This document shows, piece after piece, positions 13,425-44,162 of a stretch of 44,447 bases of DNA. Source of the stretch: a virus. The first letter of the stretch is position 1; each line of letters begins with the position of its first letter. The notes beneath the pieces are model-generated. The model ran no database searches. It was not told the origin of the DNA and saw only the letters and a program-made list of their open reading frames with translations. Location of the stretch: positions 1 to 44,447 of IMG/VR virus record IMGVR_UViG_3300043256_000246. One strand, written 5' to 3'. A program made the position numbers and the translations under genes.

Positions 13425-14081
13425 TCACGCCTCAAGCTCCATGTTTATTTGAGCCCTCCGGAGTCGGTCAGCTGCCATCTCGCAATATTCTTCGCTGATC
13501 TCAATGCCGATCGCCTCGCGACGAAAGAGGTTCGCCACGGCGAGGAGTGTCGTTCCCGAACCCATGAACGGATCGAGCACGAGGTCGGTAGTCTCAGTCC
13601 ACCACCGCACGAGCCATTCGACGTGGCGCAGTTTCCGTGGACATGGGTGGTCCGTTTCCCGTCCCTTTGGGCTTGGATCTGTGCAGCGACCGGGGATGAT
13701 GTGCTGGCCTTTGCGTGACTTCGGGGGCGCGCCGAACAGGTATCCCACGTCGCCCGTCATGCCGAGACGGCCCTTGTAGCTCATGCGGACGACCTCGAGC
13801 CACGCAACGCGGAAGAAGGGCAGGCCGACAGGCACCGCGGCGAGGAAGCGTGGATCTGAGTCGCAGCCTAATTGAATCGCCGCCCGTTTCGGCAACCCTG
13901 GTAGTGCCTCCCACATCGCGCCGAACATCGCCAACGGATCCTTCTGCCCGAACATCGGCACCTTGGCGTTCGGCCACACAGGATCGGTAATCACCGCATC
14001 CGCAGGCTCCAGCTGCGGCAGGATCTCCCGGCAGTCCCCGTGATAGATCGTGGCCCGCTCATCCTCGTAGTAGGGCTTCAC
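13425..14081 (-). CDS. DNA methyltransferase, N4-cytosine or N6-adenine type
   Basis: The 218-residue enzyme starts at a GTG (14081) and begins MKPYYEDERATIYHGDCREIL. The catalytic motif IV reads DPVW (usual form DPPY/DPPW), and the SAM-binding motif DPFMGSGTT is near the C-terminus, followed by GIEISEEYCEMAADRL. This motif order is the beta class. It transfers methyl from S-adenosylmethionine to an exocyclic amino group in DNA. No endonuclease gene is adjacent, so it is an orphan methyltransferase, probably protecting phage DNA from host restriction or affecting gene expression. The target sequence cannot be told. Confidence 0.88.
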   Translation of the reverse strand: MKPYYEDERATIYHGDCREILPQLEPADAVITDPVWPNAKVPMFGQKDPLAMFGAMWEALPGLPKRAAIQLGCDSDPRFLAAVPVGLPFFRVAWLEVVRMSYKGRLGMTGDVGYLFGAPPKSRKGQHIIPGRCTDPSPKGRETDHPCPRKLRHVEWLVRWWTETTDLVLDPFMGSGTTLLAVANLFRREAIGIEISEEYCEMAADRLRRAQINMELEA

Positions 14082-14103
14082 GTCTGTTCCTCCAGCGCCC
14101 GCC

Positions 14104-14865
14104 TCACGGCCTCGCCTCCATCAGCTCGAGAGCCCGCTTCACAGCCTTAGCGATCGCGCGGCCCATTGGAAGCGGTACGCCATTGCCGATGACCTTCCGC
14201 TTTCCGTGGGCTGTGAATGGGGCTTCCTCGAGAAAGTGGCGGGGAAGTCCTTGGAGCTCGCACATGTCCGCAATGGTCTGTCGGGGTCGGTCAAATGGGG
14301 TGCCGTGTCCTGCCGTGACCGTTGGCGGCTTCCACGTCCCCTTGACTTTGCCGCCAGGTGCCATCTTGACGGGCACTGCCCGCTGGTCTGTCGTCACCGC
14401 TTGTGCAAATAGCGGGTTTTCAAGGGCCACGGTTTCTATTGGCAAGCAGCGAGTGCCGCGCAACGACCCGAACGAAAAGCGGCGCACGCGATGCTGCTCC
14501 TCGCCTAACCAGCGATTGTTGAGCAGCGTCTCGTTGACACCGTAACCATCAACACCCGGGGCCGGTGCGGCGGGCACGTTTTCCATGAGGAACCACGCCG
14601 GTCGAGCCTCAGCAACGACCCGCTCGAATTCAGGGATCAGGTTGCCCTGCTTGCCGCCAGCTTTCGGATTGAGGTGGCGGAACCGGCTGAACACCTGGCA
14701 CGGCGGCCCACCGATCACCCCATCGAACACACCCGCCGGCGGGTGGAACATCTTGATGTCGCCACCCCAAAGAAGGTCAGGACCGCGGACCACGCAAAAG
14801 CCTTCCTCTTCGAAGGCGCGATCGAGTAGGCCGATGCCGGGGAATAGAGAGAGGACGAGGCTCAC
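14104..14865 (-). CDS. DNA (cytosine-5) methyltransferase
   Basis: The 253-residue protein begins MSLVLSLFPGIGLLDRAFEE (motif I, with the FxGxG SAM site). Motif IV GGPPCQ contains the catalytic cysteine and motif VI is ENV. The final part (ITAKAVKRALEL region) has the motif X-like GNGVPLPMGRAIAKAV. The GTG at 14865 overlaps the stop of the upstream gene, which supports it over the TTG at 14877. The length is short for a C5 methyltransferase, so the recognition domain is compact. It is paired with the amino-methyltransferase 22 nt downstream, with no restriction enzyme. An anti-restriction role is likely. Confidence 0.9.
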   Translation of the reverse strand: MSLVLSLFPGIGLLDRAFEEEGFCVVRGPDLLWGGDIKMFHPPAGVFDGVIGGPPCQVFSRFRHLNPKAGGKQGNLIPEFERVVAEARPAWFLMENVPAAPAPGVDGYGVNETLLNNRWLGEEQHRVRRFSFGSLRGTRCLPIETVALENPLFAQAVTTDQRAVPVKMAPGGKVKGTWKPPTVTAGHGTPFDRPRQTIADMCELQGLPRHFLEEAPFTAHGKRKVIGNGVPLPMGRAIAKAVKRALELMEARP

Positions 14866-15083
14866 GGCCTCGCCCAACCAGTGTCACGCCGGATAGTCAC
14901 CACGTCGCCGTTCACCAGCCCTTCCAGAAACGCGATGCGAGCCGCCAGCTCCCGGACCTTGTCGGCAAGGTCGGCAACTTCCTCATCACGGCTTCGACGG
15001 GTGCATGTGCAGCGACTGTGACCGTACACGGCGCAACCGATGCAACCAGGGATGTGGACGCCATCCATCGTATAGCAGCCCAT
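14862..15083 (-). CDS. Small zinc-finger/coiled-coil protein
   Basis: The 73-residue product begins MGCYTMDGVHIPGCIGCAVY and has six cysteines in the first 30 residues (CIGC and CTC among them), then a leucine-rich helix (EVADLADKVRELAARIAFLE). It suggests a zinc-stabilised N-terminus and an oligomerising coiled-coil. Its stop overlaps the methyltransferase start (GTGA). It is the first gene after attP in the leftward direction. Function unknown. Confidence 0.6.
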   Translation of the reverse strand: MGCYTMDGVHIPGCIGCAVYGHSRCTCTRRSRDEEVADLADKVRELAARIAFLEGLVNGDVVTIRRDTGWARP

Positions 15084-15373: not shown

Positions 15374-15814
15374 TCATCGTGATTCAACCTTGCCGGTTTC
15401 CAGGTCAAGCCAGGCTTCTTCGCCGTTAGCCCATTCCTCTGACATCCCTACATGGAAGCTCAGGTCCGTCGACAGGTATGTATCGGTGATCGACTTAAAG
15501 GTCTTGGTGACTACCTTGTCCTCCCACGAAAACTTCGTTGAGTGAAGTCCGCGAGTAGCATGTTCGACCTCTGAGTAGTGATTCTCACAGTCAATCGCTC
15601 GGGCGATCATGGGCTCAAGCGCCCCAACCTCGTGGAGTCTTTGGAACATGTCGGGAAGGCTACCCAACTCATAATCCCGCCGGCCCCAGACCGGATCGAT
15701 CAGGTGCCCGTTGTTCTCGTGTACATCAGCCCAAATCCGTTTGAGTGCGGCCTGTACAGGAACACCAAAATCGTTGTCGCCAAACCCTACTCGCAGGTAT
15801 CGACGGCCACTCAT
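15374..15814 (-). CDS. Hypothetical protein downstream of integrase
   Basis: The 146-residue product starts at 15814, where ATG overlaps the integrase stop (ATGA). It begins MSGRRYLRVGFGDNDFGVPV and contains HLIDPVWGRRDYELGSLPDM and a C-terminal acidic segment. No domain is recognised. Co-translation with the integrase and its position beside attP suggest a role linked to recombination or to prophage maintenance, but there is no motif to support a specific one. Confidence 0.6.
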   Translation of the reverse strand: MSGRRYLRVGFGDNDFGVPVQAALKRIWADVHENNGHLIDPVWGRRDYELGSLPDMFQRLHEVGALEPMIARAIDCENHYSEVEHATRGLHSTKFSWEDKVVTKTFKSITDTYLSTDLSFHVGMSEEWANGEEAWLDLETGKVESR

Positions 15815-16887
15815 CCCGTCTTCCTCCCCCGTCGCAGCATGTCGCTGATCCCCTTCGCCGCCTTCCGCGAGATGAGGCGCCTCGAGTACCGGTGAGACAT
15901 CTTCGGGTTGGTGTGGCGCAGGTGCACCGTGAGGTCTCGATCGCTCACGCCGGCGTCGCCCGCGAGCTGGGCGCCGAAGTGTCGAAGATCGTACATGCGG
16001 AAGTCCTTGAGCTTCGCCTTGTCCCGGGCCTTGTTGAAATAGACCCTTAACCAGCGGTCCTGGAGCTGGGAGGGCACGCCGGCGTCGATCCACGGCCACT
16101 CCTCCTCCTCCACGCCCACCCACTGGTCACGGACCACGTTCTTCGTGCCCCTGACATGCACCATGAAGTTGACGGGGTCGAGATCCTCTCGCGTGAGACT
16201 CAGGTACTCGGCCGGCCCCGTGAGGAGCAGCACCATCGTCACGAATGAAGCCTTGCACCGTTCATCGGCCCCGTCGATGAACTTCCAGAACCCCTTTGCG
16301 TCGAGTGTCGGCACACGCCCCTCTGGCTCCCTACGTGTCTTGTAGAGGCCCATGACCTCGAGCCGGAAGGAGTGGTGGACGTGCCCCAGATAGTGGGTCA
16401 GGAAGGCAGAGAGCGTTGCCCGGGTGCGGTTCCAGTCGGTGTCCGAGGCTCCCCAGTACCGGTGGAGCTTCTTGTAGTCGATCCGGGCCAGCTCCCCCAC
16501 AGGGGATGCCGAGGTGATCTTGGCGTGTTTCTGGAACCGCTCCCAGCCCACCTTGTACCGCCGCCGGCTCTGCGGCGCTGCGGCCGAGTTCGGGAGCCAC
16601 GCATCGATTGCGGCCTCCAGTGGCTTGTGGAGCTTCAGTCGATCCGCGACCCGCAGCACGCGGTCATGGCGGTCGGCGTCGACTAGATCCTGAATCGTGA
16701 GTTGTCCGGCTTTGAGGAGCCGCAGCGTCTCCAGGGAGCCCTGCTCGATCAGCTTCGTGAGGATGCCGTCCCGCCTGTGGTATTCTCTCAAACTCGCCGT
16801 GCCGGCGCTGCACCGGATCCTGCCCACACCCTTCACAACCCTGTCGAATTGGAAGTTCCTCGAGCCTCGCATCCGTTGTGGTGTCAT
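15811..16887 (-). CDS. int: Tyrosine-recombinase integrase, with box I arginine apparently missing
   Basis: The 358-residue protein starts at 16887 with an ATGA overlap. Residues 85-170 look like a SAM-like core-binding domain, and 195-358 is the catalytic domain. Box II is present as YDLRH (299-303, Arg302), the third motif is LRH (His325), and Tyr334 in HRYSR is the probable nucleophile. Box I, normally TGxRxxE, reads TGPAEYLSL at 223-231: two residues including the catalytic arginine are absent. The usual His of HxLR is Tyr. So it is clearly an integrase by sequence, but activity is uncertain. It would recombine attP (15241-15285) with a host tRNA gene. Confidence 0.85.
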   Translation of the reverse strand: MTPQRMRGSRNFQFDRVVKGVGRIRCSAGTASLREYHRRDGILTKLIEQGSLETLRLLKAGQLTIQDLVDADRHDRVLRVADRLKLHKPLEAAIDAWLPNSAAAPQSRRRYKVGWERFQKHAKITSASPVGELARIDYKKLHRYWGASDTDWNRTRATLSAFLTHYLGHVHHSFRLEVMGLYKTRREPEGRVPTLDAKGFWKFIDGADERCKASFVTMVLLLTGPAEYLSLTREDLDPVNFMVHVRGTKNVVRDQWVGVEEEEWPWIDAGVPSQLQDRWLRVYFNKARDKAKLKDFRMYDLRHFGAQLAGDAGVSDRDLTVHLRHTNPKMSHRYSRRLISRKAAKGISDMLRRGRKTG

Positions 16888-17093
16888 GTCGCCACCTGTC
16901 TTTCGAGCCATGCGCGGGCGGGATACTCCGCCCACACGACTGTCCGGTGTCCGAGTTTGGTACGACCCGCCTTGAGGTTGGCCTTCACCCACGCCGGGGT
17001 CACCTTCCCGTTGAAGATTTCCGTTGCTACCTCCCCCGCGTCAAGTAGCCGGCCGACATTCGGAGGGGGTTGGGGAATCTGAAGCTGTACCAT
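16884..17093 (-). CDS. Excisionase-like small DNA-binding protein
   Basis: The 69-residue product begins MVQLQIPQPPPNVGRLLDAG and contains VTPAWVKANLKAGRTKLGHR followed by TVVWAEYPARAWLERQ. This is the pattern of MerR-like winged helices used by excisionases and AlpA-type proteins. It lies directly upstream of the integrase (ATGA) and its start overlaps the previous stop (TAATG). Xis function, directing the integrase towards excision, is inferred from size, fold pattern and position. Confidence 0.6.
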   Translation of the reverse strand: MVQLQIPQPPPNVGRLLDAGEVATEIFNGKVTPAWVKANLKAGRTKLGHRTVVWAEYPARAWLERQVAT

Positions 17094-21414: not shown

Positions 21415-21707
21415 ATCGCCTCATAAACGCTCGCCGGGCTGCCTTTGCCCGTGAGCCGTGTTTCGCCAGTCAACCGCACGAAGCCGCCCTCAACGAGCTT
21501 GCTCATTCGCCGTGCGGAGGTGGGGTGGTCAAAACCACAGCGGATATCGATTTGCCAATACGTCATTGGGCCGTGGGCACGTAGCGCGTCGAGGATCTGT
21601 CGCCGTTGCGAGGGCGCGCGGTGTTCCGCTTCCCGGCCGGCAACCTGTGAAGTCTCAGGGTCGGTGGTTCGCGCCAAGGGCGTGAAGAGATCGAGTTCCG
21701 GGTTCAC
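21411..21707 (-). CDS. Winged-helix DNA-binding protein
   Basis: The 98-residue product starts MNPELDLFTPLARTTDPETS. RRQILDALRAHGPMTYWQID and TSARRMSKLVEGGFVRLTGE form a winged helix of the type seen in many phage early regions. It is coupled to the initiator gene (ATGA). Possibly a regulator or replication accessory. Confidence 0.65.
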   Translation of the reverse strand: MNPELDLFTPLARTTDPETSQVAGREAEHRAPSQRRQILDALRAHGPMTYWQIDIRCGFDHPTSARRMSKLVEGGFVRLTGETRLTGKGSPASVYEAM

Positions 21708-22408
21708 GCGGCCATCTCCGGGAACACGCGGTGACGTTCGCCGTCAAGCGTGGCTTCGTCGCCGCCTCTTTTGTTGCTGCTCGGGCCACCCCATTGCTTA
21801 AAGAAGAACGGCACCCTACACTCGGCGCACCGATCACGGATGGCCCGCACCCACCACGCCTCCATACGTCGCCGCTTCGGTCCGCTCTCACCGCCAACGA
21901 TGACCCAATGGATACCGTCGAGGTTTAGATCAACGGGGCCGAGCAGGGGTTCGAGGCTGAGAAACCGCACCGTCGCTGGCGTCTCGCGCAACAGATCGGC
22001 GCGGAATGCAAACCGTTGGTTCTCGATGCTCACGCCCAACCAGACATTGGCATACGGCCAGTCGATCGGGAGGCGCGTCCGCATGTCTGCTAGTCGCTTC
22101 GTCAGAATTTGATAGGTGAGATGCCGCGTTTCGCGGATGATCTCGTATGCCGCAGGGCGCCAGGGGTCCGCCGCCGGGTGGAAGAAATCACTGAACGAGC
22201 AGGTAAACACCTTCTGCGGTTCCTTTAGCCGCAACGGCATCCCGAAAGTCCGGTCTTTGGTCCGATGGACGTTCCCGAAAAACTCTTGCCCGTACCGCTC
22301 AACGATGTCGGCAGCATAGCAGTGTGCACACCCAGGCGAGACACGATCGCACCCGACCCAAGGATTCCAAGTAGCGTCCGTCCACTCGATCGCCGAGCGC
22401 TCACCCAC
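21704..22408 (-). CDS. DUF5131 (phage Gp37/Gp68) family protein
   Basis: The 234-residue protein is taken from a GTG at 22408 with AAGGAG upstream; it begins MGERSAIEWTDATWNPWVGC. The segment GCDRVSPGCAHCYA holds three cysteines spaced like a radical-SAM iron-sulfur cluster site, and the C-terminal VIVGGESGPKRRRMEAWWVR and PFFFKQWGG are characteristic of this family, which is common in phages and mobile elements. The biochemical role is not established to my knowledge. It overlaps the HNH-like gene by 8 nt. Confidence 0.8.
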   Translation of the reverse strand: MGERSAIEWTDATWNPWVGCDRVSPGCAHCYAADIVERYGQEFFGNVHRTKDRTFGMPLRLKEPQKVFTCSFSDFFHPAADPWRPAAYEIIRETRHLTYQILTKRLADMRTRLPIDWPYANVWLGVSIENQRFAFRADLLRETPATVRFLSLEPLLGPVDLNLDGIHWVIVGGESGPKRRRMEAWWVRAIRDRCAECRVPFFFKQWGGPSSNKRGGDEATLDGERHRVFPEMAA

Positions 22409-22796
22409 GACCCGTCTCCTTCCGCCACTGAGCGGTGCGTGCTCGTGCCTTGGCGTAAAGATCAACGTTGCGGAGGATGCAGAACCGGCCTGTGTTTTTC
22501 TCTTGCTCATCGTGGCACGCGGGAAGTAGGAGGGCGATGTTATCCAGTACCATGCCAGTTCGGCTACGCGGGATTAGATGCGCCCGTTGCCGGTAGCCCC
22601 ACCTACCACATTCGCAATCGCACGGGCCGCGCTCTTCGGTCATCGGCTTCATCCACTTCCACTGTGCCTTGTCGTCAGCCGTGAGCTTGAACATCGTGCC
22701 GCCACGGTTGCGGAGCCGCGTATGCCGAGCGATCGGCGTCCGCTTGAGCGGCTTCGTGGGAGCCGAGAGGGTGCTGTTGTGGGCGAGGTACTTCAC
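22401..22796 (-). CDS. HNH-endonuclease-like protein
   Basis: The 131-residue product has CDCECGRWGYRQRAHLIPRS followed by NIALLLPACHDEQEKNTGRF: a zinc-associated HNH-type core with AHLIPRS and PACHDE as the histidine-bearing motifs. The N-terminus is basic (LKRTPIARHTRLRNRGG). Proteins of this type in phage replication regions may resolve or nick DNA. It overlaps the next gene by 8 nt and its start by 4 nt. Confidence 0.65.
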   Translation of the reverse strand: MKYLAHNSTLSAPTKPLKRTPIARHTRLRNRGGTMFKLTADDKAQWKWMKPMTEERGPCDCECGRWGYRQRAHLIPRSRTGMVLDNIALLLPACHDEQEKNTGRFCILRNVDLYAKARARTAQWRKETGRG

Positions 22797-24577: not shown

Positions 24578-24810
24578 CGGGCAATTTCCTCCGTGGTGAT
24601 GGTGTCCAAGCGGACGTGATCTTTGAATTGCGCGGCGACGCTTTTCCTCGCGGTGAGTATCAGGTCATCGAGCAGTTGGTCGTACTCACGCCGCCCTGGT
24701 GTCGCCAAGGCTTCGTAGCCACACAACAGGGCATCAAGCCGCTGCCGCAGGGTCACTGACACGTCGACGCCCTCGTGACTGGCGGGGCTTTGGCCTGTGG
24801 GGTCAGCCAT
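24574..24810 (-). CDS. Small helical hypothetical protein
   Basis: The 78-residue product starts at 24810 (MADPTGQSPASHEGVDVSVT), overlapping the previous gene by 8 nt. It is helical (LRQRLDALLCGYEALATPGR) with no recognised domain. Its stop overlaps the candidate annealing-protein start (ATGA). Confidence 0.55.
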   Translation of the reverse strand: MADPTGQSPASHEGVDVSVTLRQRLDALLCGYEALATPGRREYDQLLDDLILTARKSVAAQFKDHVRLDTITTEEIAR

Positions 24811-25084
24811 CGCAGCCGTCGGGGCGCACGGCAACCATGATCGGCTCCAGCATTTGCCCGCCGCTGTCAATCAAGCGGATGAGTTGGTTGACCCACGTCT
24901 TGCGCTCAACGCGTTGGTAGCGGTTGTCTACTTTCAGGTCGCTGAGTTGGCTATACGGAATTGTGACGAGTCGACCGTATTCAACCTCATCGGCTGAGAT
25001 CATCAGGTGTGGCGGAAAACCGTTGCGTTTGCGCAAACGCTTGACGCGGCGCTGGGAGTTACTAAGCCGCTTCTTCTTGCTCAT
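24803..25084 (-). CDS. Short ParB-N-like protein, apparently truncated domain
   Basis: The 93-residue product has a basic N-terminus (MSKKKRLSNSQRRVKRLRKR) and a segment VDNRYQRVERKTWVNQLIRL and PIMVAVRPDG that matches the first half of a ParB/sulfiredoxin-type domain. In full proteins this is followed by a DGQHR-type nucleotide-binding motif; here translation stops right after RPDG. It may be a shortened DNA-binding adaptor. It overlaps the upstream gene by 23 nt. Confidence 0.5.
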   Translation of the reverse strand: MSKKKRLSNSQRRVKRLRKRNGFPPHLMISADEVEYGRLVTIPYSQLSDLKVDNRYQRVERKTWVNQLIRLIDSGGQMLEPIMVAVRPDGCDG

Positions 25085-26661: not shown

Positions 26662-26720
26662 CTACCGTACCTTGCTGAGTTCACGTACCACGCAAGCAGC
26701 ACTATAGCGTGACACACGAC

Positions 26721-26749
26721 ATATTGTAGCCTAGGCGACGTTTTGTCAA
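26721..26749 (-). promoter_or_regulatory. Leftward early promoter
   Basis: On the minus strand a perfect -35 TTGACA (26744-26749) is followed by TACAATAT (26721-26728). Read as TACAAT the spacer is 15 bp, as CAATAT it is 17 bp. The start site would lie near 26713, about 50 nt before the first early gene. The GGTTACATC half-site lies immediately upstream of the -35. Confidence 0.7.
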
Positions 26750-26756
26750 GTACCCA

Positions 26757-26765
26757 GGTTACATC
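26757..26765 (+). promoter_or_regulatory. Operator half-site in the divergent region
   Basis: GGTTACATC matches nine bases of the arm TTGGTTACATCT of the palindromes at 27214-27308. It lies 8 bp upstream of the -35 of the leftward promoter and 17 bp before the repressor start. A matching second half is not present. Confidence 0.45.
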
Positions 26766-26781
26766 AGCAGATAGGTTGTTG

Positions 26782-27207
26782 ATGGACAACGATTTACGCC
26801 GTCGTCAGATTGCTGGGTGGATTCGGGTGGGGCGAGCAGAAAAAAACTGGACGGTTGACGAGCTTGCCCAGGCGGCGGAGATGTCTCGACCTGGACTCTC
26901 CGACATTGCCAACGAGAACACGGACGCCAAGCCCGAGAGTCTGAAGAAAATCTCAGACGCCTTGGGAAAACCCATACCAGAGATAGGAGAGGGGGACGGA
27001 ATGGACCCGGTTCGTGAAGTCAGGGCGACGCGGGCAGCGGAGATCTTAGCAGGGGCCGCGAAGGGCGCCCATCGGCTGTTAGACGCCGCCGAGTTGGACG
27101 CCGCCGAACAGACTTTGTGGCGGGGTATGCAGGCAGCTGAGAAGGAACTGCTGGATGAAGGCCCTGGATTCAAAGAGGACGAGGCTGCTGGCGGCACCTC
27201 TGCTTGA
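26782..27207 (+). CDS. XRE-family (cI-like) repressor
   Basis: The 141-residue protein is taken from the ATG at 26782 (MDNDLRRRQIAGWIRVGRAE); an earlier start at 26743 would overlap the leftward promoter. Residues 10-65 form an XRE-type helix-turn-helix (TVDELAQAAEMSRPGLSDIA) followed by PESLKKISDALGKPIPEI. The C-terminal part is helical (RATRAAEILAGAAKGAHRLL) and lacks the S24 protease domain of lambda cI, so RecA-stimulated self-cleavage is not expected. It is divergent from the early operon. It probably holds lysogeny and may act on the palindromes downstream, though this has not been shown. Confidence 0.8.
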   Translation: MDNDLRRRQIAGWIRVGRAEKNWTVDELAQAAEMSRPGLSDIANENTDAKPESLKKISDALGKPIPEIGEGDGMDPVREVRATRAAEILAGAAKGAHRLLDAAELDAAEQTLWRGMQAAEKELLDEGPGFKEDEAAGGTSA

Positions 27208-27213
27208 TTCACT

Positions 27214-27244
27214 AGATGCAGCCAATAGGTAGTTGGTTACAAAA
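27214..27244. promoter_or_regulatory. Palindromic operator-like site 1
   Basis: Left arm AGATGCAGCCAA (27214-27225), 7-bp spacer, right arm TTGGTTACAAAA (27233-27244). Compared with site 2, the left arm has two mismatches and the right arm three. It lies seven bases after the repressor stop. Confidence 0.55.
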
Positions 27245-27277
27245 ATGAAGGAGATTTCAAGAGAGTTTCATAAAGTC

Positions 27278-27308
27278 AGATGTAACCAATCGCTCGTTGG
27301 TTACATCT
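27278..27308. promoter_or_regulatory. Palindromic operator-like site 2 (perfect)
   Basis: AGATGTAACCAA (27278-27289) and TTGGTTACATCT (27297-27308) form a perfect 12-bp inverted repeat around a 7-bp spacer. Its centre is 64 bp from that of site 1, close to six helical turns. It lies 56 bp before the next plus-strand gene. It could act as a repressor operator or as an RNA hairpin; there is no T-tract after it. Confidence 0.65.
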
Positions 27309-27363
27309 AGATAAGGGGTTTGTGTGGGGGCCGGAGGGCCTAATCAAACGAAGGAGGTGGAAG

Positions 27364-27567
27364 ATGAAGACACGTATCCGCAGGATTTTCAGGGTCTTGA
27401 TCGTCACCATCCCGCTTTCTCTTGCCGTCGGCGCCCCGAGTGGCTGCGGCTCAAACACTAGCGGTGTCTGTTGTAAGACGTGCACGACCGGGAAGGCATG
27501 TGGGGATAGCTGTATCTCCCGCGACAAGACGTGTCAGGTCGGGGCGGGATGTGCCTGTAATGGATAG
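27364..27567 (+). CDS. Small exported cysteine-rich protein
   Basis: The ATG at 27364 follows AAGGAGG. The 67-residue product has a basic start (MKTRIRRIFRVL), a hydrophobic stretch and a signal-like end LAVGAPSGC; the lipobox is imperfect, so either lipidation or ordinary Sec cleavage is possible. The mature part contains nine cysteines, including CCKTCTTGKACGDSCIS, a motif I know from small secreted or membrane-anchored proteins of unknown function in several bacterial groups. In a prophage, a secreted protein next to the repressor suggests lysogenic conversion. Confidence 0.7.
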   Translation: MKTRIRRIFRVLIVTIPLSLAVGAPSGCGSNTSGVCCKTCTTGKACGDSCISRDKTCQVGAGCACNG

Positions 27568-27937
27568 GCGCCGGTTTCTGCCCACGCTCACTATTATTGC
27601 TCTCATAGCGGCCTGCGGAACCGAAGAACTATCGGGACCAGGCGATGGTTTCGACGAGGGCGGCGAGACGCCATTCGATGTCACGGTCACGGTCACGGCA
27701 TCTTTAGCGCCGACCAGCGGATGTCGCGTTACTTGGAAGGCAAGGGCCAACGACCGACTGGTCGAGGTTTCCTATCGCTTACGGATAGACGACAGTCAAA
27801 ACGCAGCATTTACTGGAACCTTCCGAGATTCAACGTTGGTTGTTTGGGATCAGGCAATCCAGAGATCCCTGACTGTCGGTTGGATTGTTTCGGCTGGCAC
27901 TTGGGCTAAAGAGGGAAGTGCCGGCCTCAGCTGCTAG
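27560..27937 (+). CDS. Putative lipoprotein
   Basis: The 125-residue protein begins MDRRRFLPTLTIIALIAACG: a basic start, a hydrophobic core and a good lipobox LIAAC (Cys19). The mature part starts GTEELSGPGDGFDEGG and continues with a beta-rich stretch (FDVTVTVTASLAPTSGCRVT) that may be an immunoglobulin-like fold. It overlaps the preceding gene by 8 nt, so the two are co-expressed. Phage lipoproteins encoded beside the repressor often block superinfection; that is only a possibility here. Confidence 0.75.
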   Translation: MDRRRFLPTLTIIALIAACGTEELSGPGDGFDEGGETPFDVTVTVTASLAPTSGCRVTWKARANDRLVEVSYRLRIDDSQNAAFTGTFRDSTLVVWDQAIQRSLTVGWIVSAGTWAKEGSAGLSC

Positions 27938-27947
27938 CCTCCTTCTT

Positions 27948-27965
27948 GAGCACCACCTAGGAGAA
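27948..27965 (+). repeat. Intergenic repeat GAGCACCACCTAGGAGAA, copy 1
   Basis: This 18-bp sequence is identical to copy 2, and 15 bp of it recur in copy 3. It lies 10 bp after the stop of the lipoprotein gene and about 70 bp before the next start. It includes the palindrome CCTAGG and the Shine-Dalgarno-like TAGGAGA. A possible 22-codon ORF (ATG at 27977) follows. Confidence 0.7.
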
Positions 27966-28034
27966 ACAGGAACGAAATGATCACGTTGCAGCTGATGGGC
28001 AGAGCAGTTAGGCAGCCCCAAAGGAGTACCGCTG

Positions 28035-28376
28035 ATGGCCGGTGAGCAGCTCCGCCAACAGACCTTAGAACAGGTTCTCGACCAGGTGCAGGCCCTGGCT
28101 TCAGTGGCGAGCAAACCCCAAGTCCAATCCGTCATGGCGGTTCTAGTCCGCTGCACTATGGAACTCAGCGAAAGCCTCGCCGCAGCCGCCGGTGAGATCA
28201 AATCGGCCACCAGCGAACTTGGACGGACTCGGGCAGAGATTTGCGCCTTCAACAAGTCCACGACTGAGCTCACGAATCGTGTGATTCGCTTGAACCGGAT
28301 CCTCACGTGGGCTACGGTCGTGATCGCCATCGGCACGGTCGTTGTGGCGTTTACCGCGATTTTCGGACCAGGTTAG
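28035..28376 (+). CDS. Coiled-coil protein with C-terminal membrane anchor
   Basis: The ATG at 28035 follows AAAGGAG. The 113-residue product is helical throughout (TLEQVLDQVQALASVASKPQ, ELSESLAAAAGEIKSATSEL) and ends in one membrane segment (ILTWATVVIAIGTVVVAFTA) at about 90-109. The arrangement is that of a tail-anchored inner-membrane protein with a cytoplasmic coiled-coil. The family is not recognised. It belongs to the lysogeny-side plus-strand block. Confidence 0.65.
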   Translation: MAGEQLRQQTLEQVLDQVQALASVASKPQVQSVMAVLVRCTMELSESLAAAAGEIKSATSELGRTRAEICAFNKSTTELTNRVIRLNRILTWATVVIAIGTVVVAFTAIFGPG

Positions 28377-28427
28377 GAGTTGGAGTTCGCAGCGCCGTCT
28401 AAACCAGCTCATGTACCTGAGGACGCC

Positions 28428-28445
28428 GAGCACCACCTAGGAGAA
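28428..28445 (+). repeat. Intergenic repeat GAGCACCACCTAGGAGAA, copy 2
   Basis: Identical to copy 1, 51 bp after the stop of the coiled-coil gene and 88 bp before the start of the zinc-ribbon gene. Confidence 0.7.
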
Positions 28446-28533
28446 CCCGGAACCCGCCGCAGAAGAGTGCAACATTCGGATGCCGTCCGGGCATCGATTA
28501 TTGAGGCTTACCGGAGCCAGAGAGGGTCTGACA

Positions 28534-28734
28534 ATGCTGAGAATCAAGGGTGAGGTCCGAGGCGATTATTTCCACCTCGAATGTGAGAAGTGCCGTAAGT
28601 GGGTCCAACTGGAGAATCTTCGGTGGGTGGGCGGCGTCCCTCAGGTGGAGTTCGTCTGCCCGAAATGCGAAGAACGTGAGGACCTCAAACTCCATCCCCC
28701 AACCTGGATGAGTGTCTTTCCCCCACCTGAATAA
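28534..28734 (+). CDS. Small zinc-ribbon protein
   Basis: The 66-residue product (MLRIKGEVRGDYFHLECEKC) has CEKC and CPKC separated by about 30 residues, with beta strands between, a classic zinc ribbon. AGAGGG precedes the ATG at 28534; an in-frame start at 28480 is possible. It may bind nucleic acid or act as an adaptor. No closer family is recognised. Confidence 0.6.
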   Translation: MLRIKGEVRGDYFHLECEKCRKWVQLENLRWVGGVPQVEFVCPKCEEREDLKLHPPTWMSVFPPPE

Positions 28735-28769
28735 CGACGCAAACCAAATTAGGACATCACCCGGCGGGG

Positions 28770-28784
28770 CACCACCTAGGAGAT
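28770..28784 (+). repeat. Intergenic repeat, copy 3 (15 bp GCACCACCTAGGAGA)
   Basis: The 15-bp core of copies 1 and 2 recurs 36 bp after the zinc-ribbon stop and 93 bp before the ParB-like start. It is followed by ATGGAGGGGTAG, a three-codon ORF. Confidence 0.65.
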
Positions 28785-28877
28785 TGGCCGCAATGGAGGG
28801 GTAGCGGATCAGGCGTGGAAGGTCGAAGATTTGGTAGATATGCTGGACCCCACGATTCCAATTCGGGAGAAGAGATA

Positions 28878-29657
28878 ATGGCCACGTACGCCCTGCACTC
28901 GTTAGCTAAGATCGTCCCGCCAATGACAGCCGAGGAATACGCTGAACTCAAAGCCGACATCAAGGCGTACGGGTTGCGGGAGCCTATCACTCTGTACCAA
29001 GGCAAGATTCTCGATGGTGTACATCGCTATCGCGCCTGCCGCGAACTCAGAGTGAAGATCAAGACACGGGTATGGAAGCGGGACGGCGGCCAACCTATTC
29101 ACTACATCATCTCAGAGAACGTCAAACGCCGCCACCTCACGACTGGTCAGCGCGCAGCGTTGGCAGTTGAACTGCGGCCGATCGTCGAGCGTGAACTGGC
29201 TGAGAAGGAACCCCCCCGGAAATCCGGGGGGGCAAAGCCTCATAGAGCACCGGCGCTGAAGGTTGCCGCCGAGTACGTAAAAGTGCATCCGTCAGCCGTC
29301 GAGACATATTCCAGAGTGGCTAAAGAAGCGCCCGACTTGGCCAAGAAGGTCCGCGCCGGCATACTGCCCCTCTACGCCGCACACGAGCAGTACCGGGCAC
29401 GTCAGCCACAACCGAAACGGAAGCCCCCAACCGTCAAGCAATTGAGTGAGCGAGCGCATACAGCGGCGACGACCTTCGCCAAGTCGGTGGCGGCACTCAC
29501 CAAGGCGCGGGGGGACCTGACATTCATGGAACTCTGGGCCATCTGGGCAGCGATTTTCGAGGTACAGGGCTATCTGGAACAGATTGCCCGTAAGCATCAG
29601 TTGCCCGTTCCTGAGACACCGGGCGAATTGAAGCGACTGAAACAGAAGGCCCGATGA
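28878..29657 (+). CDS. ParB-like DNA-binding protein
   Basis: The 259-residue protein begins MATYALHSLAKIVPPMTAEE. Residues 15-70 match the ParB N-terminal nucleotide-binding fold (KADIKAYGLREPITLYQGKI, then LDGVHRYRACREL). A HTH-like region follows (NVKRRHLTTGQRAALAVELR and VAAEYVKVHPSAVETYSRVA). The C-terminal third is helical (TFAKSVAALTKARGDLTFME). Such proteins act as sequence-specific transcription regulators or partition factors. No ParA gene is present, so a partition role is less likely. It is coupled to the next gene (ATGA). Confidence 0.8.
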   Translation: MATYALHSLAKIVPPMTAEEYAELKADIKAYGLREPITLYQGKILDGVHRYRACRELRVKIKTRVWKRDGGQPIHYIISENVKRRHLTTGQRAALAVELRPIVERELAEKEPPRKSGGAKPHRAPALKVAAEYVKVHPSAVETYSRVAKEAPDLAKKVRAGILPLYAAHEQYRARQPQPKRKPPTVKQLSERAHTAATTFAKSVAALTKARGDLTFMELWAIWAAIFEVQGYLEQIARKHQLPVPETPGELKRLKQKAR

Positions 29658-30223
29658 GTCCGAAGCAGCGCCGTCGACACGTTTGGCAGAGGCAGATCGT
29701 GCCGATGCTCAACTGGATCAAGTATGAGTGTGCCCCCAGGGCGACCGCACCGGGGCCGTGGTGGGAACCGGACATACATGCCCTTCACCTATCCTACGAG
29801 GAACTAGCGGAACACAGCGACGGTCTCGATTTTACCACGGACGGGCAAGCAAGCCAGCGAGGGGTGCTCTATAACCGCCGCAAGGACATTCAATCCCAAT
29901 TCGGGCTGTACTTCGACGACTCTCCGGGCGGTCTCAGGTTCACGATGCTACCGAAATTGGGGATGCTGTGGCGTTACGAAGAAGAACAGAAACGGACACA
30001 GAGTGCGTTGGCCAAGACCGCCGACATGACGCGAGAAGCCATTGAGGCGAGCGGTACGCAAATCGAAGCTCAATTGTTCAAGGCGGTGGAGAACCAGTAC
30101 CGCGAAGTCGAAAAACGGGCCGGTCGGCTGCGGGAGATGACCCAGGTCTTGCTGGCGCGTCCCGATACATCGGAACCCCCAAAAGAGCTTCCACCGCGAC
30201 GCCGTAAGAAGAAGCGACCCTAA
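29654..30223 (+). CDS. Basic protein of unknown function, partner of the ParB-like gene
   Basis: The 189-residue protein begins MSPKQRRRHVWQRQIVPMLN. A central part (LHLSYEELAEHSDGLDFTTD, NRRKDIQSQFGLYFDD) may be a winged helix, and the C-terminal half is a long charged coiled-coil ending in RRRKKKRP. It overlaps the ParB-like gene by 4 nt, so the two likely act together. No homologous family comes to mind. Confidence 0.6.
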   Translation: MSPKQRRRHVWQRQIVPMLNWIKYECAPRATAPGPWWEPDIHALHLSYEELAEHSDGLDFTTDGQASQRGVLYNRRKDIQSQFGLYFDDSPGGLRFTMLPKLGMLWRYEEEQKRTQSALAKTADMTREAIEASGTQIEAQLFKAVENQYREVEKRAGRLREMTQVLLARPDTSEPPKELPPRRRKKKRP

Positions 30224-30265: not shown

Positions 30266-30298
30266 GCTCCTTGGGGAACCCCTCGGGAGCTTTGTCTT
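30266..30298 (+). terminator. Rightward terminator after the plus-strand block
   Basis: GCTCC (30266-30270) pairs with GGAGC (30286-30290), with an inner GGG/CCC stem, followed by TTTGTCTT. It lies 43 bp after the last plus-strand gene and would stop that transcript before it runs into the endolysin gene from the other side. Confidence 0.55.
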
Positions 30299-44090: not shown

Positions 44091-44162
44091 TAGCAGGGAC
44101 AGGATTCGAACCTGCGATCTCCGGGTTATGAGCCCAGCGAGATACCACTTCTCCACCCTGCG
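44091..44162 (-). tRNA. Initiator-type tRNA-fMet (CAT)
   Basis: The 72-nt minus-strand sequence folds as a tRNA: acceptor CGCAGGG/CCCTGCT, D-stem GAGA/TCTC, anticodon loop CTCATAA (anticodon at 44128-44130), T-arm with GGTTCGAAT. The anticodon stem carries three consecutive G-C pairs (GGG/CCC), the first acceptor pair is mismatched (C1 against U72) and position 11:24 is A-U, all hallmarks of bacterial initiator tRNA. CCA is not encoded. It is separated from attP by 15 kb and is unrelated to it. Confidence 0.88.

What the first reader, a model, noticed from the sequence alone, without database searches (positions are those of the whole stretch)
26782..30223. Plus-strand lysogeny-side block with unknown exported, membrane and ParB-like proteins
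Seven genes on the plus strand are the only ones opposing the rest of the genome. Beside the repressor are two likely exported proteins (one with lipobox LIAAC, one with nine cysteines and the CCKTCTTGKACGDSCIS motif), a tail-anchored coiled-coil protein, a zinc ribbon, and a ParB-like protein coupled to a basic coiled-coil protein. Together with its own operators and terminator this looks like a lysogenic-conversion or superinfection-exclusion locus, possibly with a DNA-binding pair as a regulator or effector. No member matches a defence system I can name.
Basis: partly seen in the sequence, partly recalled or inferred. Interest (0 to 1): 0.65.

Follow-up and report, generated by a model that had tools for sequence, protein, structure and literature searches.

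The report
Repressor-linked accessory operon with cysteine-rich lipoprotein
Next to its dormancy switch this bacterial virus carries a small set of extra genes, one of which makes a short exported cysteine-rich protein of an unnamed family that turns up beside the same kind of switch in unrelated viruses, so it probably alters the surface of the infected host cell.

Summary
Seven plus-strand genes (26782-30223) oppose an otherwise minus-strand temperate siphophage that has a tyrosine integrase. They are an HTH repressor, a 9-Cys exported protein (g2), an overlapping lipoprotein (g3), a tail-anchored coiled coil, a zinc ribbon, a ParB-like protein and an overlapping partner (g7) modelled at modest confidence as winged helix plus coiled coil. 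No Pfam, NCBIfam, PHROG, PADLOC or PDB entry names g2; g3 and g7 matched none searched. Its 30-residue, 8-Cys domain has at least 95 distinct sequences, mostly on alphaproteobacterial chromosomes, also on plasmids and on 29 IMG/VR contigs. In 9 of those (6 unrelated groups) it lies 0.1-1.9 kb downstream of a CI-like repressor on the same strand, once 5 nt away; in others it sits opposite the tape-measure gene. It is also linked to SNase-like nuclease genes. I read the block as a repressor-linked accessory (moron) operon whose g2-g3 pair modifies the host envelope. Caveats: the only strong operator-like palindromes lie between repressor and g2, so g2-g7 may be repressed in the lysogen; ParB relatives elsewhere are ordinary early genes; exclusion is untested.

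The parts
26662..26781 (.). Divergent regulatory gap: leftward sigma70-type promoter TTGACA-15-TACAAT (26749 to 26723, minus strand) and an operator half-site CAGGTTACATC at 26755-26765
   Evidence: Only 11/12 promoter match in the whole window; half-site 9/11
26782..27207 (+). g1, Cro/CI-type HTH repressor, 141 aa, no peptidase domain
   Evidence: PF01381 HTH_3 E 3e-9; PHROG transcriptional repressor E 3e-8
27215..27307 (.). Two operator-like palindromes (27215-27243 imperfect, 27279-27307 perfect), 64 bp apart, between repressor and g2
27364..27567 (+). g2, exported or lipidated 67-aa protein with C-terminal 8-Cys domain CCxxC-x5-CGDSC-x6-C-x5-CxC
   Evidence: 131 relatives in GTDB genomes, 29 in IMG/VR; eight Cys conserved in 93 equal-length distinct sequences bar one residue; no family model
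27560..27937 (+). g3, lipoprotein (LIAAC lipobox), 125 aa, 8-nt overlap with g2
   Evidence: Sequence; no significant family hit
27948..27965 (+). Direct repeat copy 1, about 70 nt before g4
   Evidence: 0 of 100 shuffles had three copies
28035..28376 (+). g4, coiled coil with C-terminal membrane anchor, 113 aa
   Evidence: KD19 2.34 at residue 93; only coiled-coil type hits
28428..28445 (+). Direct repeat copy 2, about 89 nt before g5
28534..28734 (+). g5, small zinc ribbon (CxxC...CxxC), 66 aa
   Evidence: Sub-threshold zinc-ribbon hits only
28767..28784 (+). Direct repeat copy 3 (2 mismatches), about 94 nt before g6
28878..29657 (+). g6, ParB-like DNA-binding protein, 259 aa
   Evidence: phrog_4715 ParB-like E 3e-10, phrog_21315 E 7e-18; 23 phage relatives
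29654..30223 (+). g7, probable winged-helix plus helical-hairpin protein with basic tail, 189 aa, ATGA overlap with g6
   Evidence: Single-sequence AF2 pLDDT 69.7; many Foldseek hits are winged-helix regulators but none has E below 0.001; no sequence relatives
30266..30291 (+). Terminator-like hairpin with short T-run, between g7 and the convergent amidase gene

Best explanation
The block is the immunity region of a temperate siphophage carrying an accessory (moron) operon. g1 is the repressor. g2 and g3 are overlapping, probably translationally coupled genes for exported (lipo)proteins that act in or on the host envelope, most likely as lysogenic-conversion or superinfection-exclusion factors. 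g4 is a membrane-anchored helper of unknown role. g6-g7 are a DNA-binding pair of the ParB-like kind that phages use in early regulation or replication, with g5 as a small zinc-binding protein. g1 probably binds the two palindromes before g2 and the half-site before itself, so that it tunes its own level and g2-g7. Shown: the genes, their coding signal, the family of g2, its recurrence beside repressors, the palindromes and a terminator-like hairpin. Inferred: export and lipidation, operator function, timing of expression, envelope effect.
For: Integrase and HTH repressor. The g2 8-Cys domain lies on the same strand 0.1-1.9 kb downstream of repressors in L156, L157, L159, L161, L162, L163-165 and L166 (PHROG-confirmed for all but the L163-165 copies of the L161 type): 9 of 29 viral contigs, or 6 of about 21 groups, against 3 of 80 genomic loci (Fisher p 0.002 by group). 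In L162 it starts 5 nt after the repressor stop, so it is very probably in the repressor transcript. L159 reads repressor - lipoprotein - 8-Cys protein, and in L157 a lipoprotein-like sequence follows the repressor and appears to run into the 8-Cys domain. Tape-measure moron sites on the opposite strand in L002, L153/L154 and L169. Several of these records carry integrase or portal genes. [quoted passage not shown]
Against: The strong operator-like sites lie between repressor and g2, so the operon may be off in a lysogen. g6-type genes elsewhere are early lytic genes. No exclusion phenotype is known for any 8-Cys protein, and most copies are chromosomal. Many of the 29 contigs show no repressor nearby. 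The HTH model used for the comparison was built partly from the viral hits, which favours them. Export of g2 and g3 is judged by eye only.
Confidence: 0.5

Rival explanations
1. The block downstream of g1 is a lambda-PL-like early operon: g1 represses it through the two palindromes, and after infection or induction g2-g7 act briefly in host takeover or early gene regulation, with g6-g7 as the working DNA-binding pair.
For: The only two strong palindromes are in the g1-g2 gap. ParB-like relatives lie in early operons before helicase, primase or methylase genes in LE1, AP1 and MseS-P1.
Against: g2-like genes recur inside or beside the repressor transcript in other phages, in L162 with no room for an operator. 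No clear sigma70 promoter before g2 was found.
Confidence: 0.25
2. A heterogeneous pile of unrelated morons without any common role, each with its own control, collected at a permissive site.
For: g2, g3 and g5 fit the phage's codon usage poorly. Most genes are separated by 97-157 nt gaps. g3, g4, g5 and g7 have no recognised relatives.
Against: Coupled pairs g2-g3 and g6-g7, one terminator-like hairpin at the end, and shared repeats before g4, g5 and g6.
Confidence: 0.18
3. g6-g7 with the three direct repeats form a partition-like or centromere-like unit that maintains a plasmid-prophage state or regulates the block, the repeats being the binding sites of g6.
For: ParB-like protein, a possible winged-helix partner, and three repeats confined to this block.
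Against: No ParA was seen among the early genes scanned. The phage has an integrase. The repeats are asymmetric and lie 70-94 nt before genes, and no relative carries more than one copy.
Confidence: 0.07

Closest known systems
Ltp superinfection-exclusion lipoprotein of S. thermophilus phage TP-J34 (PMC3952083)
   Same: Phage lipoprotein gene in the lysogeny module near the CI-like repressor
   Different: No relation seen in family searches (no direct sequence comparison made); Ltp acts in a Gram-positive host and its exclusion is demonstrated, here it is not
Fc02 exclusion gene in the repressor transcript (PMC9936078)
   Same: Small protein gene in the lysogen-expressed repressor transcript
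   Different: It lies upstream of the repressor and is overlapped by another ORF; no sequence comparison was made
Lambda immunity region with the PL operon (own knowledge)
   Same: Repressor gene followed by operators and an accessory or early operon reading the same way
   Different: Different proteins and operators; here the palindromes lie directly after the repressor gene
Phage ParB-like early proteins (Leptospira LE1, Acidovorax AP1, Mesorhizobium P1)
   Same: ParB N-terminal domain protein overlapping its downstream gene
   Different: Others precede helicase or methylase genes in early operons; here the partner is g7, on the repressor strand
Pseudoalteromonas phage C5a gp23 (SH3 domain protein)
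   Same: Exported phage protein with part of the same motif (CRKGQPCGNSCIS), on the opposite strand to its neighbours, between a regulator and the portal gene
   Different: Motif is partial (weak hit, E 0.06) and fused to an SH3 domain
Cluster K start-associated sequences (PMC3203893)
   Same: Short asymmetric repeat containing AGGAG, copies before several genes
   Different: SAS sit immediately before start codons; here the repeats are 70-94 nt away

Membership tests
Lysogeny-module accessory gene (moron) | Lies in a temperate phage genome, transcribed against the late genes | tested here: met
   Integrase; plus-strand block in a minus-strand genome
Lysogeny-module accessory gene (moron) | Found at varying sites in unrelated phages | tested here: met
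   For g2 only: g2-like genes beside repressors, tape-measure genes and an integrase in unrelated contigs
Lysogeny-module accessory gene (moron) | Expressed in the lysogen | not testable with these tools
   Needs RNA-seq; the operator position leaves it open
Superinfection-exclusion lipoprotein (Ltp-like) | Sequence similarity to known Sie families | tested here: inconclusive
   No significant hit for g2 or g3 in Pfam, PHROGs, NCBIfam or PADLOC; absence of a model is not proof
Superinfection-exclusion lipoprotein (Ltp-like) | Blocks DNA entry of infecting phages | not testable with these tools
   Bench assay needed
ParABS partition system | ParB-like DNA-binding protein | tested here: met
   g6, PHROG ParB-like families
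ParABS partition system | ParA ATPase | tested here: inconclusive
   None seen among scanned genes, but not every ORF was scanned
Start-associated sequences (SAS) | Copies immediately upstream of start codons | tested here: not met
   Repeats end 70-94 nt before g4, g5 and g6
Known anti-phage defence system | Match to a PADLOC system | tested here: not met
   Only generic HTH hits for g1 and weak hits for g4 and g5

The most novel reading that the evidence does not exclude
The 8-Cys exported proteins are a widespread, undescribed family of envelope factors working with extracytoplasmic nucleases. Prophages express them from the repressor side so that incoming DNA of competitors is intercepted at the envelope; in this phage the lipoprotein g3 would be the partner. 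Basis: SNase-like thermonuclease genes lie within 1.5 kb in 16 loci and further away in one (12 of 13 after removing the seed loci, p about 8e-7), and one member is fused to a protein that looks like an endonuclease/exonuclease/phosphatase (L006, judged by motif).
Probability: 0.12. Interest if true: 0.75.

Novelty: new member of a known kind. Interest (0 to 1): 0.5.

Why it matters
It brings out a compact, strictly conserved exported 8-Cys domain without any family model that phages carry again and again beside their repressors. That is a short list of candidate exclusion or lysogenic-conversion genes that can be cloned and tested directly.

Tried and rejected
Single-sequence scans of IMG/VR for g1, g6 and g7 found no relatives, and g2 alone gave one; only the deep alignment of g2 opened up the family. 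The repeat 15-mer gave 17 single-copy viral contigs, about what chance could give, and no multi-copy relative. AF2 of g2 is unusable (pLDDT 51). VIA-align matches of g7 to small terminases cover only its helical hairpin (Z about 9) and are not trusted, since helical hairpins reach such values commonly. A link of g5 to the zinc ribbon of GpA terminases (L119) did not hold against the window's own terminase. The host could not be settled: Gemmatimonadota were tried because L004 and L008 have g2-like lipoproteins, but TerL identity is at most about 50% over most of its length, g7 gave nothing, g3 gave two weak hits to the N-terminal signal region, and tetranucleotide usage is undecided. No literature on the motif or on thermonuclease-linked exclusion was found. 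Virus relatives with 91-94% identical head genes (L101) are fragments that do not reach the block. No conserved operon neighbour other than SNase was found for the chromosomal g2 relatives.

Full report
What is there. The window is a whole IMG/VR virus record of 44,447 bases. It has GpA-type TerL, portal, a fused protease/major head protein, a tape measure and a tyrosine integrase at 15811-16992, so it is a temperate tailed phage. Nearly all genes read leftwards. The plus-strand block 26782-30223 is the one exception with real coding signal. The minus-strand lysis genes converge on its right end, with a terminator-like hairpin between. The leftward early genes diverge on its left; their gap holds the only near-consensus sigma70 promoter in the window, TTGACA-15-TACAAT on the minus strand.

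Control elements. Two palindromes of the form GATGTAACCAA-N7-TTGGTTACATC lie in the 156-bp gap between repressor and g2, one perfect and one 18/22, with a half-site before the repressor. The natural reading is that g1 binds them, which is inference. If so, g2-g7 are under repressor control, as in the lambda PL operon, and lysogenic expression cannot be assumed. A separate direct repeat, G[AG]GCACCACCTAGGAGA, stands before g4, g5 and g6 and nowhere else in the window. It is not a start-associated sequence as in cluster K phages (PMC3203893), since it is 70-94 nt from the start codons. Its role is unexplained.

g2 is the informative gene. No library names it. A two-sequence alignment found 131 relatives in GTDB genomes, the best 80 kept, mostly Alphaproteobacteria with some Gammaproteobacteria, Gemmatimonadota, Bacteroidota and others. 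Nearly all have an N-terminal hydrophobic stretch and carry the same domain, usually at the C-terminus. Among 93 distinct domain sequences of equal length all eight cysteines are invariant except one residue in one sequence; the search seeded on part of the motif, so that stretch is biased, the other cysteines less so. It also occurs on plasmids.

Recurrence in phages. A scan of IMG/VR with a 41-sequence alignment found 29 contigs. Neighbour inspection and PHROG scans show CI-like repressors upstream on the same strand in L156, L157, L159, L161, L162, L163-165 and L166. A repressor converges on it in L167, it lies opposite the tape-measure gene in L002, L153/L154 and L169, and next to an integrase in L151/L152. 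With an HTH model, 9 of 29 viral contigs have a repressor within 2 kb upstream on the same strand, against 3 of 80 genomic loci (Fisher 0.002 with contigs collapsed by hand to about 21 groups). The model was trained partly on the viral hits, so the contrast is somewhat inflated. L162 has 5 nt between repressor and g2-like gene. L159 runs repressor, lipoprotein, 8-Cys protein, with a further lipoprotein-like ORF after it. In L157 a lipoprotein-like sequence follows the repressor and appears to continue into the 8-Cys domain. The theme of a lipoprotein plus an 8-Cys protein beside the repressor is therefore shared, though the partner lipoproteins were not shown to be homologous to g3.

Nuclease linkage. 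SNase-like thermonuclease genes lie within 1.5 kb of the 8-Cys gene in 16 loci and further away in only one, although the far regions hold about three times as much sequence. One member is fused to an apparent endonuclease/exonuclease/phosphatase protein. This window has no SNase gene by the same model. The link suggests an extracytoplasmic DNA-related role, which would fit DNA-entry exclusion, but nothing tests it.

The rest of the block. g6 is ParB-like. In named phages its relatives sit in early operons before helicase, primase or methylase genes, so it is ordinary in kind and probably regulatory or replicative. g7 has no sequence relatives. A single-sequence model of moderate confidence suggests a winged helix followed by a helical hairpin, and Foldseek's weak hits include many winged-helix regulators. 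g4, a coiled coil with a membrane anchor, and g5, a zinc ribbon, remain unassigned.

Verdict. Superinfection exclusion is a reasonable but untested specific role. The set as a whole is an accessory operon of a known kind, holding at least one undescribed protein family.

Noticed in passing
27948, 28428, 28767 (+): Three copies of G[AG]GCACCACCTAGGAGA before g4, g5 and g6. Copies 1 and 3 are in the reading frame of the downstream gene (a stop codon intervenes after copy 1; copy 3 is open into g6). Function unknown.
   Followed up: partly
L003-L082 and L143-L170: SNase-like thermonuclease genes are clustered within 1.5 kb of the 8-Cys genes in chromosomes and viral contigs; one also lies about 2 kb from it on a plasmid (L172).
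   Followed up: partly
24803-25084 (-): A second, short ParB-like protein in the leftward early region (phrog_1033, E 2e-4).
   Followed up: no
13425-14877 (-): Partial matches to an N6/N4 DNA methylase (C-terminal part only) and a C5 methylase in adjacent ORFs, possibly broken or split genes.
   Followed up: no
26723-26749 (-): Near-consensus leftward promoter with a short 15-bp spacer and a GCCTAGGC palindrome inside it, next to an operator half-site.
   Followed up: partly
44091-44162 (-): tRNA-Met gene at the window end; 42 bases match Pseudomonas phage pf16 tRNA-Met at 97.6%.
   Followed up: no
21704-22510 (-): DUF5131 (PF07505, E 2e-77) protein in the early region.
   Followed up: no
L101: A 6.3-kb IMG/VR fragment with head genes 91-94% identical to this phage (portal, protease/head protein, TerL); the block itself is not covered.
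   Followed up: no
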